A stretch of 64,000 nt of DNA. Source: an uncultured Veillonellaceae bacterium (GTDB lineage: Bacteria > Bacillota > Negativicutes > Selenomonadales > Selenomonadaceae). Every line of letters starts with the position of its first letter. Position 1 is the stretch's first letter. Below are positions 27,685 through 34,058 of the stretch, piece by piece. The notes below the pieces were generated by a model that did no database searches, was not told the origin of the DNA, and worked only from the letters and a program-made list of their open reading frames with translations. The position numbers and the translations under genes are program-made. The DNA is taken from the NCBI GenBank assembly GCA_902801565.1, contig CADCIX010000005.1:1-64000 (forward strand). Direction: 5' to 3'.

Positions 27685-29562
27685 ATGGCAATGTCGGTTT
27701 TGTACAGCTCGTCCTCCATGTCTGCGCTGGGTGAACTGAACAAGAATTCGAATGCGCTGGCAAAGGATTTGAAGAAAGTATCGACCGGCATGCGGGTGAA
27801 CGGCGCCGGGGATGATGCGGCGGGGTATTCCATCTCGGAAAAGATGAGGGTGCAGCTTCGCGGGCTGGAGCAGGATGTGCGGAATGTCCAGAACGGGCAG
27901 AAGCTTCTTCGGACGGCGGAGGGGGCTGTGGCATCCACGGTGGACATCCTGCGGACGATGAAGGAGAAGGCGCTGAATGCCGCCAACGATACGAACACGG
28001 ATGATGACCGTGCCATCATCCAGAAGGAGATCGACCGCCTTGTGGATCAGGTGGACGAGAATGCCTACATTACCTATAACGGAAAGTATATCCTCAATAT
28101 CCCCGGCTATACGGTTCCCATGGCAGACGAAAGCGACGATTCCGTGGAGGCGGCCATCGTGAGAGCCCTTCACAGCGAGTGGTTCCAGAGTTGCCTGGAC
28201 CTTCTGGGCGAGTCCTTTGACATGAGCTTTGACGAGAGCGGCACGACGGTGAACACCATCAATGTGGAGTTTGGCAATGACGGGGGAAATGCGCTGGCCT
28301 ATGTCTCCCATACCTATAACACGGCCACGGGCGAGACTACGGGGCTGCTCCTGCATATCAACATGGACTATTATGGGCAGCTCAACACCAAGGATGTGAA
28401 TGGCTCGACGGCAACGGCAGGTGCGGGCTATCTTGACCGCACACTGGCTCATGAACTCACCCATGCACTCATGGCGGCAAACATTACACATTTTGATTCG
28501 CTTCCCCTGTATGTCATGGAGGGCATGGCAGAGCTTGTCCATGGGATTGATGATCAGCGCACGGGTTCCATCCTGAACTATGCACAAAAGAGCAAGGCAG
28601 CAGATACCGCCAATGTGCTGGCGAATTCCGGCAATTACAAATCGGGGGAGGAACCCTATGCCATTGGCTATACCCTGCTCCATTACATGGCGAAGAACGG
28701 AGCTGCCAGCACGGGAAAGTCGCAGCTTCAGGTCATCAAGGATTTCATGAAGGAATTGGACGATTCCACCGTTGGCGGGATGACTGCCTACGATGCTGCG
28801 ATCAATACTGCCACAGGGGGGCTTTTCGCGGACTCTTCGGCTCTGACATCGGCATATATCACTGATGTGACAAATAATGGAGGAAATGGGACAGCTGCAG
28901 ATGCGGTGCGCTTCCTGAAGGATTATTGTGGCATTGTGATGTACAATGCCGATACCGGGTCGGCCACCGGCTCGGACATGGGAGGCAGTGTTACCAAGAC
29001 AGCGGAGAGCATTGTCCCCGAGGAGGGCCCCACATCGAAATGGACCTTGCCGACCTCTGTCTCCACAACCTTCGTGGGCGGGTTGACTGCCATCTGGCCC
29101 AGCGAATACGTGGACCTGCTTGGAGGCATCACCAGCAAGGAGGAAGGTTCCCCCGGCGTGATGTACCTGCAGGTCGGCACGAAGGCGAATCAGACGACGA
29201 TGATCTCCTTTGGCGATATGCGGGCGAAGGCTTTGGGCCTCCGGGATGCGGCGGGGAACACCATCAGCGTCAATCCGCGGGAGAATGCGGAAAAGGCAAT
29301 CGACATCTTCGATGCTGCCCTTGACAAGGCCTTGGAGGAACAGACGAACATCGGGGCCCTGCAGGTCAGGCTTTCCTATACTGCGGACAACCTTACAACG
29401 GCCAACGAGAATACCCAGGGTGCGGAATCCGTCATCCGTGATGCGGATATGGCGAAGGAAATGGCCTCTTATACGAGGTCCAATGTCCTGCAACAGGCGG
29501 CACAATCCATGCTGGCGCAGGCAAACCAGAACCTGTCTGCTGTGCTTGCGTTGCTTCAGTAA
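27685..29562 (+). CDS. Flagellinolysin: flagellin with internal zinc metallopeptidase domain
   Basis: The flanks are flagellin: N-terminal residues 1-135 (LGELNKNSNALAKDLKKVST, GMRVNGAGDDAAGYSISEKM) and C-terminal residues 490-625 (GAESVIRDADMAKEMASYTR, ending SAVLALLQ). The central variable region of about 340 residues holds a zinc-peptidase motif, LAHELTHALM near residue 255, with Glu-containing EGMAELVHG about 20 residues later, as in gluzincin-type peptidases. This is the layout of flagellinolysins, enzymatically active flagellins known from several phyla. AGGTGGTGA is the ribosome-binding site, the same as for flgM. It has its own sigma-28-like promoter and is probably co-transcribed with the next flagellin 42 nt downstream. 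Confidence 0.93.
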   Translation: MAMSVLYSSSSMSALGELNKNSNALAKDLKKVSTGMRVNGAGDDAAGYSISEKMRVQLRGLEQDVRNVQNGQKLLRTAEGAVASTVDILRTMKEKALNAANDTNTDDDRAIIQKEIDRLVDQVDENAYITYNGKYILNIPGYTVPMADESDDSVEAAIVRALHSEWFQSCLDLLGESFDMSFDESGTTVNTINVEFGNDGGNALAYVSHTYNTATGETTGLLLHINMDYYGQLNTKDVNGSTATAGAGYLDRTLAHELTHALMAANITHFDSLPLYVMEGMAELVHGIDDQRTGSILNYAQKSKAADTANVLANSGNYKSGEEPYAIGYTLLHYMAKNGAASTGKSQLQVIKDFMKELDDSTVGGMTAYDAAINTATGGLFADSSALTSAYITDVTNNGGNGTAADAVRFLKDYCGIVMYNADTGSATGSDMGGSVTKTAESIVPEEGPTSKWTLPTSVSTTFVGGLTAIWPSEYVDLLGGITSKEEGSPGVMYLQVGTKANQTTMISFGDMRAKALGLRDAAGNTISVNPRENAEKAIDIFDAALDKALEEQTNIGALQVRLSYTADNLTTANENTQGAESVIRDADMAKEMASYTRSNVLQQAAQSMLAQANQNLSAVLALLQ

Positions 29563-29604: not shown

Positions 29605-32600
29605 ATGGCGATGACAGTCCTGAATAACACAGCGTCAATGATGACCTTGGGAGAGCTCAACAAAAACATCACCCAGGTCGGCAAGGAACTTGCGAGGATT
29701 TCCAGCGGGCAGAGGATCCGGGGAGCAGGAGATGGGGCGTCCGAGTATGCCATTTCAGAGAAAATGAGGGTGCGCATTCGTGCCTTGGACCAGGACAAGC
29801 AGAATGTGCAAACAGGGGCGAACCTCTTGCAGATTGCGGCAGGAGCAATCCAGGAACAGATGGATATCATGAAGAAAATCAAGGAAAAGGTGCTTGATGC
29901 CGCCAATGACAGCAATACAGATATTGACAGGGCAACGATACAGAAGGAAATCACCCATGGATTGAAACAGATAGAGACAATCGCCTATGATACGACCTAC
30001 AACGGAAAGCACATCCTTCTGGGAAGCGAAACCTATGGGGAGAAGGTTCTCGATGAGTGGGATGAGAGTCATATTGAGAAGATTCTTTTGGGGCAAAGGG
30101 TTGAGTGGGAAATTCTGTCGGGAGGAACGCAGGATGTTGACGGAAGTTCCCTGGACATCATTCCCGATGATTTTCCGGAACTCGATGGGGTGCAGGGGCC
30201 GTTTGCCGTTTTTGAGCCTTACCATGCCGGAAGATTGACATCGATTGACAGCCTTTCCATATTCTCGAATTACAATATGAATTATTTCAGCGGCGGGGAA
30301 AACGGGACGCCGAACCACGTGATTGTGGATCTTTCCTCCTATGGCAGCGTGGAGGAGTTGGATGGTGTTGGCTTTGTGGTAGGCGACTCGTCCAACAGGC
30401 TCACATATATCCTGACAACGGATCCCGATGCCCGCTTCAACAATAGCGCGAACAATACGGTCTTTGGAATCAATTACCAAAATTCCACCACGAAGAACAG
30501 CAATTACAAGATGATTGATATCAGTGGATGCAATGAGGTCTGGGAGGTGGCGGAAAAAATCAAATCGGCTTCCTACACTTATTTCGATACGGAGCGTGAT
30601 GGGGAGAAGATAACCTTCAAGACGAAGGATGGGTATCTGTCCGATTTGGCGGAGACGAACAATAATCGCACCATTGTCAGTGCTGAGGCCAGCAATGCCG
30701 ATACAAGGGAAGTAATCATTCAGCAATATTCTCCTGCGGGCACTACAACTGTATCGGAAAGAAAGACTGGTACGTATACGGCCGGCAGCACAGGAAGGGT
30801 GCCATCTCCGAACACCTTGGGCGGTGGGGAAATGAAGATTACAAACCCTGACAATGAGCCGGACATCACGCCTCAGGACGGCAAGTCCCCATGGCTGGAA
30901 ATGAATGTCAGCGGTGTTGCGGCGGGAACCGGCATAACCATTCATGGTCCGAGCGGCACGGCGTATCTGCAATTTTCCTCGGATTCGTCCGAATTGTCGC
31001 GTGTTACGGGTACAAATGGTTACTCTACGGGTGTTTACAGCGTGGGCACATCCTATAGCGGATCTTTTTCCTTGGCGGGTCTTAACCTGACGATGTCCGG
31101 GGGAACACTGAAACTGGAGGTGCCTTTACGGGCGAATGTTCCGGTGGAGAATGGCAAATATTCCGTGACGGAGGGGATATCCACGTCATATACTTATTAT
31201 GATTCGAAGGAACAGGAAATCCCTGAGGTGCCGGAAGTGAAGGCCACCTATGAGTTCAGGGCGGTAAAGACGCTCAATGATATCGACAACAAGAGGGATG
31301 CGGGGGATCCTACTTACGCGACATATAAGATTGATCTGGGTCCATACGTTGGCAGTACCGACATGAACAAACTCGACAGTCTTATCAACGACATGACGGG
31401 CAAGGCACTCAAGTATTTTAGTTCAAAACAGTATTATTATGGCTACAATTACGTTACATATCAGTTCAAGGACTCGGATATGGAAGCGGATGAATTTTCC
31501 AAAACGGATTTAAATGGCAGGAGCGTGCGCTTTTATGGCGTGGCGGAACAAATTTCCGGAGCGACGCAGATTGATTTGGCACCTTTGCGCACGGCGGTAA
31601 AGAACGGAACATCCATCGACCAGGCCATGAAGGATCTTTTGACATCGACGATGCTCCGTGCCACATCCACCAGTGATGGGGTTTTGATTCGCGTGCCGGA
31701 TGAACTCACTGGAACCAAGGGCAACAGCACATCGACGCAGCAATATGTAACAGCCAGTGAGGGATGTGTCTTGAGTCATTACGATGTGGATTTCAAGACA
31801 TATCTTGAGAACAATCCGGGTTTGAAAGTGCCGGACGATTTGTACGGCAAGGGATTTCGGGTTTATTGTGCATCGGATCCGGACCAATGGTTCAATTTCA
31901 CGTTTACCGGCAATGTCATAGAGGGGCAGGAGGACAAACCGGAGCTTGAGGATGTGCCGGATGTAAAAAACATATTTGTTGATATATCGGAAGCGGAAGA
32001 TGCGGCATCCCTTGTGGTTGCTATCCGTAACAGCGCAGAGACGCAGCTGGATGAGATCAATCACTACATTCACATTGAGGCAAACCCTTCCAGTGGAATC
32101 CTGACCATTTACGATGATCGCCCCTTCAATCCGAAAGACGATCCCAGGCTCCAGCAATATCCGGAAAAGCTCAGGGAAAAAGGGGCAAAGATCATGGATG
32201 GCGTGATGGACTATCTGGGAAAGACGTTCATCAATCTTTACCTTGATGAAACTGTTGTCGAGCACAAGGTGCGTTCCATTCTCAAGAAGTCCGAGGGCAT
32301 TATCATCCATGACACGGACAAGGCGAGCATGAATATCCATCTCAGGATCCCGCGCATGACACTTGACCAGATATTCGAGTACCCTCCGGGGGAAATGAAA
32401 CTGGAGGATTTCAATGTCATGACCAAGGAAATGCGGGATAAATTGCTGGGAAAGAATTCCGGGAGCGGAGGCGGTGCGGCGGAGAAGGGATTTCTTGACA
32501 CTGCCATTGAATATATGGCGGATGCCAATACGCTTATTGGAGCGCAAATGGCCCGACTGGACCATACCTTCAGCAATCTTGTTTCTGCGTCCGAGAACAC

Positions 32601-32748
32601 GATAGCATCGGAATCAGTGATTCGTGATGCCGATATGGCAAAAGAAATAGTGGAGTACACAAAGGCAAATATTCTCATGCAGGGTGCACAGGGCATGCTG
32701 TCCCAAGCCAATCAGAATGCCAGTGGTGTCCTGGGGTTGCTACAGTGA
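29605..32748 (+). CDS. Giant flagellin (1047 residues)
   Basis: N-terminal D0/D1 (residues 1-140: LGELNKNITQVGKELARISS, YAISEKMRVRIRALDQDKQN) and C-terminal D1/D0 (residues 950-1047: TIASESVIRDADMAKEIVEY, ending ASGVLGLLQ) are well kept. The central region of about 800 residues is rich in beta-type, Thr/Ser/Gly/Tyr sequence, with no recognisable enzyme motif, and would form a very large exposed domain. The gene follows the flagellinolysin by 42 nt with AAAGAGG before the ATG, so both are likely on one transcript. Its N-terminus is more divergent than that of the other two flagellins (GDGASEYAIS instead of DDASGYAIS), suggesting a special place in the filament. Confidence 0.93.
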   Translation: MAMTVLNNTASMMTLGELNKNITQVGKELARISSGQRIRGAGDGASEYAISEKMRVRIRALDQDKQNVQTGANLLQIAAGAIQEQMDIMKKIKEKVLDAANDSNTDIDRATIQKEITHGLKQIETIAYDTTYNGKHILLGSETYGEKVLDEWDESHIEKILLGQRVEWEILSGGTQDVDGSSLDIIPDDFPELDGVQGPFAVFEPYHAGRLTSIDSLSIFSNYNMNYFSGGENGTPNHVIVDLSSYGSVEELDGVGFVVGDSSNRLTYILTTDPDARFNNSANNTVFGINYQNSTTKNSNYKMIDISGCNEVWEVAEKIKSASYTYFDTERDGEKITFKTKDGYLSDLAETNNNRTIVSAEASNADTREVIIQQYSPAGTTTVSERKTGTYTAGSTGRVPSPNTLGGGEMKITNPDNEPDITPQDGKSPWLEMNVSGVAAGTGITIHGPSGTAYLQFSSDSSELSRVTGTNGYSTGVYSVGTSYSGSFSLAGLNLTMSGGTLKLEVPLRANVPVENGKYSVTEGISTSYTYYDSKEQEIPEVPEVKATYEFRAVKTLNDIDNKRDAGDPTYATYKIDLGPYVGSTDMNKLDSLINDMTGKALKYFSSKQYYYGYNYVTYQFKDSDMEADEFSKTDLNGRSVRFYGVAEQISGATQIDLAPLRTAVKNGTSIDQAMKDLLTSTMLRATSTSDGVLIRVPDELTGTKGNSTSTQQYVTASEGCVLSHYDVDFKTYLENNPGLKVPDDLYGKGFRVYCASDPDQWFNFTFTGNVIEGQEDKPELEDVPDVKNIFVDISEAEDAASLVVAIRNSAETQLDEINHYIHIEANPSSGILTIYDDRPFNPKDDPRLQQYPEKLREKGAKIMDGVMDYLGKTFINLYLDETVVEHKVRSILKKSEGIIIHDTDKASMNIHLRIPRMTLDQIFEYPPGEMKLEDFNVMTKEMRDKLLGKNSGSGGGAAEKGFLDTAIEYMADANTLIGAQMARLDHTFSNLVSASENTIASESVIRDADMAKEIVEYTKANILMQGAQGMLSQANQNASGVLGLLQ

Positions 32749-32852
32749 ATGCCTCTTTGGCGACAAAATGATGGATGGGAATGGAAGAGACCGCCATTAT
32801 GGCGGCCTCCGAGGTATACGGTTATATCCTCCCTCTGCATCGGCACAAGCGG

Positions 32853-32948
32853 TTATTTGTGACGATACTTCCTTCTCTGTGCCTCAATCCAATGGTATAC
32901 GTAGCAGGCAACTACGCCCGAAAGGACGGACATAAAGAAACCAAACAA
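32853..32948 (-). CDS. Candidate type I toxin: 31-residue membrane peptide
   Basis: On the minus strand AAAGGAGGTGA, a near-perfect Shine-Dalgarno, lies 5 nt before a TTG that opens a 31-codon frame. The peptide is hydrophobic for about 22 residues (FGFFMSVLSGVVACYVYHWI) and ends in a basic tail, QRRKYRHK. That is the standard form of holin-like type I toxins. A good minus-strand promoter starts the mRNA about 20 nt upstream of the Shine-Dalgarno, and a CCGCCA-TTA-TGGCGG hairpin (32801-32815) may end it. A divergent small RNA with complementarity to the start region lies next door. Confidence 0.6.
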   Translation of the reverse strand: MFGFFMSVLSGVVACYVYHWIEAQRRKYRHK

Positions 32949-32977
32949 CTGGCTCACCTCCTTTAGAGGCTATGAGA

Positions 32978-33015
32978 ATTATAGCATTGACTTCAGGACA
33001 TAGCAACGGTATAAT
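32978..33015. promoter_or_regulatory. Interlocked divergent promoters
   Basis: Plus strand: TTGACT (32987-32992), 17 nt, TATAAT (33010-33015). Minus strand: TTGCTA (33006-33001), 17 nt, TATAAT (32983-32978). Each -35 lies in the spacer of the other promoter, so RNA polymerase cannot occupy both at once. Confidence 0.78.
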
Positions 33016-33021
33016 ATAGAT

Positions 33022-33103
33022 AAGTACCAGATAACTGGCAAAACCGGGATGGTAACCCGGAACAGGCAACAAAAAAGACCTTCGGGGACGGAGGTCTTTT
33101 TTG
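33022..33103 (+). ncRNA. Candidate antitoxin small RNA of about 80 nt
   Basis: A plus-strand promoter with 17-nt spacing starts transcription near 33022 and a strong terminator ends it near 33103, with no reading frame inside. The RNA folds as CCAG-ATAA-CTGG, CCGGG-ATGGTAA-CCCGG and the terminator stem. Its segment CCAGATAACTGGC can pair over 13 positions, two of them G-U, with GCCAGTTGTTTGG, which covers the TTG start of the divergent toxin gene. That fits a trans-acting type I antitoxin. Confidence 0.6.
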
Positions 33104-33145: not shown

Positions 33146-33183
33146 ATTTTGCCTTTGGCAAAATTTGAACAATGCGTTATAAT
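33146..33183 (+). promoter_or_regulatory. Repeated promoter module, copy B
   Basis: The palindrome ATTTTGCCTTTGGCAAAAT contains the -35 TTGGCA (33155-33160). The -10 TATAAT (33178-33183) follows after exactly 17 nt. Transcription would begin about 30 nt before the yqeB start. Confidence 0.8.
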
Positions 33184-33221
33184 GGTTCCATGGATTTCAC
33201 AGCGAAATGGAGCGAAACGAC

Positions 33222-34058
33222 ATGAAGCGATTGGTTGTCATCCGGGGTGGCGGGGAGCTGGCCACTGCTGCCGCTATTTATCTGCACAAATCCGGCTTTC
33301 GGGTGCTGATGCTGGAGAAGGCGCAGCCTACCTCGACGCGCCGGGAGGTGTCCTTTGCCGATGCCGCCTATGACGGGAAGAAGGTGGTTGCCCGCGTGAC
33401 CTGCAGCAGGGAGGATGATCCAAAGACTGCGGAGAAGCGTCTCAAGGCGGGGGAGGTCATCCTGATGGTGGACCCCAAGGGGAAGCACATCCCCTATTTC
33501 AAGCCCAAAGTGGTTCTCGATGGCATCATGGCCCATGAGAACAAGGGAACCTCCCGGGATATGGCGGAGCATACCCTTGCTCTTGGCCCAGGCTTCTGCG
33601 CCGGGCGGGATGTGGATGCGGTCATCGAGACCATGCGGGGGCACAATCTGGGAAAGATCATCTACGAGGGCTATTCCTACCGCGACCAGGGGAAGCTCAG
33701 CCTGGTGGATGCCGCGGGTGCCGTAGGCCAGATTCTCTTTTCTCCAGAGGAGGGAACCTTTGAGGGGCTGCAGAACATTTCCTATCGGATACGGCGGGAT
33801 GAGCCTGTGGCGAGGATCCGCCGGGAGGATGGAGAGGTGATCGGGATCCGGGCGAAGATCGACGGCGTTCTTCGGGGAATCCTGCACAGCGGATGCCCTG
33901 TGAAGAAGGGACAGAAAATCGTCGACGTCAATCCCGTCATGAGCCGCGAGGAGTGCTTCACAATGACCGACAAGGCCCGCTGCGTTGCCGGTTCCGTCCT
34001 GCAGGCGGTCATGGCATGGGAAAGCAAGAAGCGCAAGCGTATCACCTTTGATTTTTGA
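33222..34058 (+). CDS. yqeB: YqeB-family selenium-dependent molybdenum hydroxylase accessory protein
   Basis: The 278-residue protein has a Rossmann-like start (RLVVIRGGGELATAAAIYLH) and matches the YqeB/EF2563 family, which is encoded with selenium-dependent molybdenum hydroxylases and their maturation genes. Other visible segments are VDPKGKHIPYFKPKVVLDGI and GIRAKIDGVLRGILHSGCPV. No hydroxylase, selD or yqeC is in the window, so its partners must be elsewhere. The ATG at 33222 has GGAG 9 nt upstream; ATG 33207 lacks a site. It is transcribed from repeated promoter copy B and precedes comF by 7 nt. Confidence 0.85.
   Translation: MKRLVVIRGGGELATAAAIYLHKSGFRVLMLEKAQPTSTRREVSFADAAYDGKKVVARVTCSREDDPKTAEKRLKAGEVILMVDPKGKHIPYFKPKVVLDGIMAHENKGTSRDMAEHTLALGPGFCAGRDVDAVIETMRGHNLGKIIYEGYSYRDQGKLSLVDAAGAVGQILFSPEEGTFEGLQNISYRIRRDEPVARIRREDGEVIGIRAKIDGVLRGILHSGCPVKKGQKIVDVNPVMSREECFTMTDKARCVAGSVLQAVMAWESKKRKRITFDF

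What the first reader, a model, noticed from the sequence alone, without database searches (positions are those of the whole stretch)
32853..33103. Candidate type I toxin-antitoxin pair with interlocked divergent promoters
A 31-residue hydrophobic peptide with a basic tail and a near-perfect Shine-Dalgarno is transcribed leftward; an 80-nt RNA with its own terminator is transcribed rightward. Both promoters have 17-nt spacing and each -35 sits in the other's spacer, so they should exclude one another. The RNA segment CCAGATAACTGGC can pair over 13 positions with the mRNA around the toxin start codon. In the RNA this segment is itself a CCAG-ATAA-CTGG hairpin, so pairing would start at the loop. 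I know of no described system with this layout in Negativicutes. Known type I systems with divergent trans-acting RNAs (for example tisB/istR) support the logic.
Basis: partly seen in the sequence, partly recalled or inferred. Interest (0 to 1): 0.78.

Follow-up and report, generated by a model that had tools for sequence, protein, structure and literature searches.

The report
Divergent RNA-controlled small toxin gene pair
A tiny membrane peptide, very probably a toxin, is made next to a short RNA that is built to block its translation; the pair belongs to a large, apparently undescribed family in the same bacterial class, and about a quarter of the members examined share this back-to-back layout, about half of those with overlapping promoters like these.

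Summary
The locus has no DNA-level relatives, but the peptide leads to a large family (consensus FxxSVxAGvvxYyiCKWLD, many copies per genome, also on plasmids). Of 130 non-redundant members, 76 have a convergent RNA downstream (layout of the Fst/par system) and 32, including this one, a divergent RNA upstream. In both, a 14-24 nt RNA segment pairs with the toxin start region; sequences differ between loci but complementarity persists (1.4-1.9% of swapped partners reach the threshold). Reciprocally interlocked promoters recur in 16 of 32 divergent loci against 1 of 76 convergent ones (both promoters strong), at near-constant spacing. Divergent loci have a terminator for the RNA (26 of 32); convergent ones usually a bidirectional terminator (46 of 76). 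The peptide carries the published Fst/Ldr signature (SxxxG, then W, then charged tail). Loop-first pairing is specific to this locus, and promoter exclusion is plausible but unproven. Verdict: a new variant of a known kind, a Fst/Ldr-like toxin under a tisB/istR-like divergent antisense RNA.

The parts
32853..32948 (-). Toxin-like peptide MFGFFMSVLSGVVACYVYHWIEAQRRKYRHK (31 aa, TTG start)
   Evidence: Profile match E 2.5e-12 to a multi-genome family (the window peptide is itself a row of that profile); start fits MLFSFFMSVVAGV-type homologues; SxxxG, W and basic tail
32954..32962 (-). Shine-Dalgarno AGGAGGTGA, predicted sequestered by CCTCT at 32965-32969
   Evidence: Sequence; SD pairing probability 0.93
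32978..33006 (-). Toxin promoter TTGCTA-17-TATAAT with TG extension; predicted start near 32971
32987..33015 (+). Antitoxin RNA promoter TTGACT-17-TATAAT, reciprocally interlocked with the toxin promoter; predicted start near 33022
33022..33102 (+). Predicted antitoxin RNA, about 81 nt
   Evidence: Promoter plus terminator; fold
33026..33039 (+). Antisense segment ACCAGATAACTGGC at nt 5-18 of the RNA
   Evidence: 14-bp match to the mRNA start region
32940..32953 (-). Target in toxin mRNA, GCCAGTTGTTTGGT, from 5 nt before to 8 nt after the first base of the TTG
33044..33060 (+). Internal hairpin CCGGGATGGTAACCCGG of the RNA
   Evidence: MFE fold
33070..33103 (+). Intrinsic terminator of the antitoxin RNA
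   Evidence: Fold; terminators found at 26 of 32 divergent relatives
32787..32809 (.). GC-rich hairpin between the toxin and the convergent flagellin gene; possible mRNA 3' end
   Evidence: Sequence only; weak T-tract
33155..33183 (+). Separate promoter of the downstream gene (33207-34058), so the RNA is not simply its leader
   Evidence: similar promoter before the same gene in a congener that lacks the module

Best explanation
A chromosomal type I toxin-antitoxin module. A 31-aa single-span membrane peptide of the Fst/Ldr kind is encoded leftward on a short-leader mRNA. An RNA of about 81 nt is transcribed divergently from a promoter interlocked with the toxin promoter. Its 5'-proximal segment (nt 5-18) pairs with the toxin mRNA from -5 to +8, covering the start codon, and blocks ribosome loading; RNase III-type decay may follow. 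The 5' leader probably also hides the Shine-Dalgarno by itself. Because RNA polymerase cannot occupy both interlocked promoters together, strong antitoxin transcription may lower toxin transcription and vice versa. Shown by sequence and comparison: the parts, the family, the complementarity, its co-variation and the promoter geometry. Inferred: transcription, translation block, toxicity, promoter competition.
For: Family profile finds relatives in most genomes of the same family and in several other families of the class. Complementarity to the start region at score 28 or more: upstream 36 of 130 against 1.9% of swapped pairs; downstream 78 of 130 against 1.4%. Each of the 17 interlocked mRNAs pairs best with its own RNA out of the 17. 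Interlocked promoters, both scoring 11 or more: 16 of 32 divergent against 1 of 76 convergent, outer -10 to -10 span 37-44. Terminators fit each layout. Fst/Ldr-type signature in 101 of 130 members including the window (signature from PMC7472228). The TimP/TimR study used the same comparative pattern and confirmed it by experiment (PMC7667032).
Against: No transcript or toxicity data. No DNA-level relative of the locus itself; one congener has a flagellin gene and the same downstream gene with no module between them, another has a MazE/PemK pair there. The window's 14 bp with 2 G-U is among the shorter pairings of the group. Its leader lacks the leader/post-stop pairing common in relatives.
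Confidence: 0.86

Rival explanations
1. A non-toxic small membrane peptide (regulatory or stress peptide) controlled by a divergent antisense RNA; the RNA control is real but the peptide is not an addiction or growth-arrest toxin.
For: Toxicity cannot be computed, and small membrane peptides are not always toxic (general knowledge).
Against: Fst/Ldr signature; weak matches of 22 of 24 members to a type I toxin model and of 7 to Ldr; relatives on many plasmids, one near ParA, which suits addiction; many diverged copies per genome.
Confidence: 0.08
2. The rightward RNA is a terminated leader (attenuator) of the downstream gene at 33207, and its match to the peptide start region is a chance direct repeat.
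For: It is transcribed toward that gene and ends in a terminator.
Against: The downstream gene has its own promoter at 33155-33183, and a congener keeps the gene and a similar promoter without the RNA. Chance of the match 0.0007. The same layout recurs at other loci.
Confidence: 0.02
3. The peptide ORF and RNA are decayed remains of such a module, no longer working.
For: Absent from congeners at this place; shorter pairing and shorter leader than most relatives.
Against: Intact ORF, strong SD, promoters 10 and 11 of 12, intact terminator, pairing retained.
Confidence: 0.04

Closest known systems
par of pAD1 and the Fst/Ldr superfamily (PMC7472228)
   Same: About 30-aa peptide, P/D/S/TxxxG motif in the membrane span, tryptophan then charged tail, SD sequestration, RNA pairing at the start codon through a repeat.
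   Different: Known par loci have convergent promoters and a shared bidirectional terminator; here the RNA is divergent with its own terminator. The NCBIfam Fst model is reached by only 3 of 24 members, weakly.
tisB/istR-1, shoB/ohsC, zorO/orzO, dinQ/agrB, timP/timR of enterobacteria (PMC3919570, PMC7667032)
   Same: Divergent adjacent RNA with limited (18-21 nt) pairing, in the 5' part of the RNA for OrzO and TimR.
   Different: Other toxins, other phylum; in the cases read (tisB, zorO, timP) pairing is in the 5' UTR, here across the start codon. No reciprocal promoter interlock was mentioned in the passages read.
Clostridioides difficile CD0956.2/RCd10 family (PMC6563280)
   Same: Small membrane toxin with charged tail; weak profile similarity (best E 9.9e-5 among 24 members).
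   Different: Those toxins are mostly 46-53 aa, some 34-35; the genes overlap convergently with long complementarity.
Prokaryotic bidirectional promoters (PMC12825309)
   Same: Divergent transcription from overlapping elements; polymerase can bind one way at a time.
   Different: There a shared -10 with start sites usually 10-23 bp apart; here two full promoters with interlocked -35 elements and predicted start sites about 51 bp apart.

Membership tests
Type I toxin-antitoxin system | Small hydrophobic peptide with charged tail | tested here: met
   Peptide sequence and family alignment
Type I toxin-antitoxin system | Non-coding RNA able to pair with the toxin mRNA, kept by co-variation | tested here: met
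   Swap controls over related loci and window controls; the RNA itself is predicted, not observed
Type I toxin-antitoxin system | Peptide toxic when expressed alone | not testable with these tools
   Needs experiment
Type I toxin-antitoxin system | RNA represses toxin synthesis in the cell | not testable with these tools
   Needs experiment
Fst/Ldr toxin superfamily | P/D/S/TxxxG motif, conserved W between membrane helix and charged C-terminus | tested here: met
   SVLSG, W20, 7 charged of 11 tail residues, histidine counted (signature from PMC7472228)
Fst/Ldr toxin superfamily | Match to curated Fst or Ldr models above cut-off | tested here: not met
   Window peptide has no Fst or Ldr hit; a few relatives match weakly
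par locus (Fst layout) | Convergent antitoxin RNA with shared bidirectional terminator | tested here: not met
   RNA is divergent; best downstream match is weak (26.4) and not at the usual position
Divergent type I class (tisB/istR-like layout) | Divergent RNA with own terminator and limited pairing | tested here: met
C. difficile type I toxin family NF047374 | Score above the curated cut-off of 60 bits | tested here: not met
   15.2 bits, E 0.021

The most novel reading that the evidence does not exclude
One toxin family of Fst/Ldr type has its antitoxin gene on the convergent side in most members but on the divergent side in part of this bacterial family, with two reciprocally interlocked promoters of fixed geometry, so that toxin and antitoxin transcription compete at the polymerase-binding step in addition to RNA pairing at the start codon.
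Probability: 0.45. Interest if true: 0.75.

Novelty: new variant of a known kind. Interest (0 to 1): 0.64.

Why it matters
It points to a large, unannotated family of RNA-controlled peptide modules in a class for which the open literature searched shows none. Having convergent and divergent layouts within one toxin family is a natural experiment on how type I modules evolve and keep cognate pairs apart in genomes with many copies. The fixed interlocked promoters make direct transcriptional competition between toxin and antitoxin testable.

Tried and rejected
DNA-level search of 189 same-family genomes: only the own locus and short, mostly terminator-like matches. Viral contigs with the three-member alignment: no relatives. 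Rfam: only the 5S rRNA at the window edge. Pfam and NCBIfam hits of the window peptide to YabQ and Git3: sub-threshold, judged chance. Solved structures: no meaningful match. Leader role for the downstream gene: rejected, it has its own promoter. Loop-first kissing as a family feature: rejected, the segment is mostly weakly structured in relatives. A tree of the roughly 30-residue peptides gave at least 15 layout changes, but such a tree is too weak to lean on. No structure prediction was run; for a 31-residue single span it would say little.

Full report
Observation. The peptide ORF (TTG 32948 to stop 32853, minus strand) has AGGAGGTGA before it; the two sigma-70-type promoters have 17-nt spacers and lie with each -35 inside the other's spacer; the rightward RNA of about 81 nt ends in a strong terminator. 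Among 13 promoter-like sites of at least 10 of 12 matches in the 64 kb, this is the only reciprocally interlocked pair. The complementarity is 14 bp (12 Watson-Crick, 2 G-U); an equal match between the start region and a random 81-mer of the window occurs with frequency 0.0007. Duplex energy is -21.3 kcal/mol against opening costs of 4.3 and 5.4.

Finding relatives. At DNA level the locus has none in 189 genomes of the same family, apart from short, mostly terminator-like stretches. The peptide alone gave weak hits, but two of these, in other genera, showed the same anatomy with different sequences: L003, MDQVITNFVTSILAGIIAYYICKWLDSHL, and L002/L040, MQNFSLIRDFLLSVIAGIVANFLFYWLIGP. A profile of the three (A1) matched 163 of 189 genomes at E of 1 or below, up to 11 matches per genome; many of the weakest of those will be chance, but 24 aligned members share S and W at all rows and F, A and Y at 90%. 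A 24-member profile matched 98 of 252 genomes of the class at E 1e-4 or better, in four family codes (f1, f4, f15, f32). Two named Lachnospiraceae contigs and unannotated places on plasmids of Ligilactobacillus, Butyricicoccus, Waltera, Mediterraneibacter and Carnobacterium carry it too.

Two layouts. From fetched loci, 152 members gave 130 non-redundant ones. For each, the region -35 to +45 around the start codon was compared with the opposite strand of a 115-nt stretch upstream and a 110-nt stretch downstream. At score 28 or more, 36 matched upstream and 78 downstream, 6 both; partners swapped between loci reach that score in 1.9% and 1.4%. Assigning each to its better side gives 32 divergent (class U), 76 convergent (class D) and 22 unassigned. 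Pairings are 14-24 nt long (10th-90th percentile) and lie within about -10 to +26 of the start in both classes. The swap control is the test of co-variation: in the 17 interlocked loci every mRNA pairs best with its own RNA; over all U loci this holds for 28 of 32 and over all D loci for 59 of 76. Members outside f1 that were classified, including the Lachnospiraceae and most of the plasmid ones, are convergent; divergent ones were found only in f1.

Terminators and promoters agree with the classes. A terminator on the divergent strand lies upstream in 26 of 32 U loci against 18 of 76 D loci; a bidirectional terminator lies downstream in 46 of 76 D against 3 of 32 U. The best toxin and divergent promoters are reciprocally interlocked in 17 of 32 U loci, 16 with both scores at least 11, against 5 of 76 D loci, 1 at that score; the outer -10 to -10 span is 40-44 in 16 of the 17 and 37 in the window. 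Another 8 U loci, of a sub-family with RDF in the peptide, have a span of 32, some as an inverted repeat of extended -10 elements. U-class RNAs are predicted at mostly 55-97 nt, with the pairing segment usually at or near the 5' end.

Mechanism. The most likely mechanism is translation block at the start codon by a divergent antisense RNA. SD sequestration is also likely: mean pairing probability 0.82 against 0.67 for shuffled leaders over the family, and 0.93 in the window. Many U relatives have a leader segment able to pair just behind the stop codon (score 20 or more in 66% against 16% swapped), a feature like the intramolecular pairing reported for par RNA I; the window, with its shorter leader, does not show it clearly. 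Promoter exclusion is plausible; in E. coli bidirectional promoters competition appeared only when one direction was strongly activated (PMC12825309).

What it is. The published signature of the Fst/Ldr superfamily is a conserved tryptophan between the membrane helix and a charged tail, with a P/D/S/TxxxG motif in most (PMC7472228). The window peptide has SVLSG, W and a tail with 7 charged residues of 11 (histidine counted); 101 of 130 members fit a relaxed form that also admits SxxxS. Curated models do not claim it: the window is below cut-off for NF047374 (C. difficile type I toxins) and has no Fst or Ldr hit, although 22, 3 and 7 of 24 members match these three models weakly. So the toxin is Fst/Ldr-like by signature, the D loci look like par loci, and the window has the layout of tisB/istR, zorO/orzO and timP/timR instead. 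The Fst/Ldr review states that the convergent promoters, bidirectional terminator and direct repeats of par were highly conserved across the homologues it covered, so a divergent form is a departure.

Neighbourhood. The module sits between a flagellin gene and the gene at 33207. One congener has a flagellin gene and that gene with only a terminator and promoter between; another has a MazE/PemK type II pair just before the same gene. This suits an accessory module at a spot that tolerates insertions; with one genome each it is suggestive only. The window's genome holds several further family members, most with a downstream match.

Limits. Promoter and terminator calls are consensus matches. The thresholds for U and D were chosen after seeing the first loci, though the swap control uses the same thresholds. 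The divergent loci come largely from a few genera, so they are not all independent. The literature searched is open-access only; no paper describing this peptide family or type I systems in this class was found, which is weak evidence of absence. Nothing here shows expression or toxicity.

Noticed in passing
window 27685-29562 (+): Flagellin-like ORF whose central insert holds HELTH, a zinc-protease-like motif (flagellinolysin-like); Pfam finds only the flagellin ends with confidence.
   Followed up: no
window 29605-32748 (+): Flagellin of 1047 aa with an insert of about 800 aa between the flagellin N and C domains, without a Pfam match.
   Followed up: no
L037 910-1487: In a congener a MazE/PemK type II pair lies directly before the gene that follows this module in the window.
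   Followed up: partly
L040, L134, L214-L220: Sub-family (LLRDFLLSLIAG...) with divergent RNA and promoters of 32-bp span, some as an inverted repeat of extended -10 elements.
   Followed up: partly
U-class loci, e.g. L105, L041, L202: Leader and post-stop segments of the toxin mRNA are complementary with changing sequence (TTGCTGCG/CGCAGCAA, GCTGTGC/GCACAGC), suggesting a closed, inert mRNA form.
   Followed up: partly
L013 (G002:C28) and L181 (G298:C13): Two members end at a stop codon where the conserved tryptophan should be; probably broken copies.
   Followed up: no
L223-L227 (plasmids), L228 (phage-collection record): Unannotated family members on plasmids of Lactobacillales and Clostridia and in a faecal phage-collection record; five of six have the convergent RNA match, one is near ParA.
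   Followed up: partly
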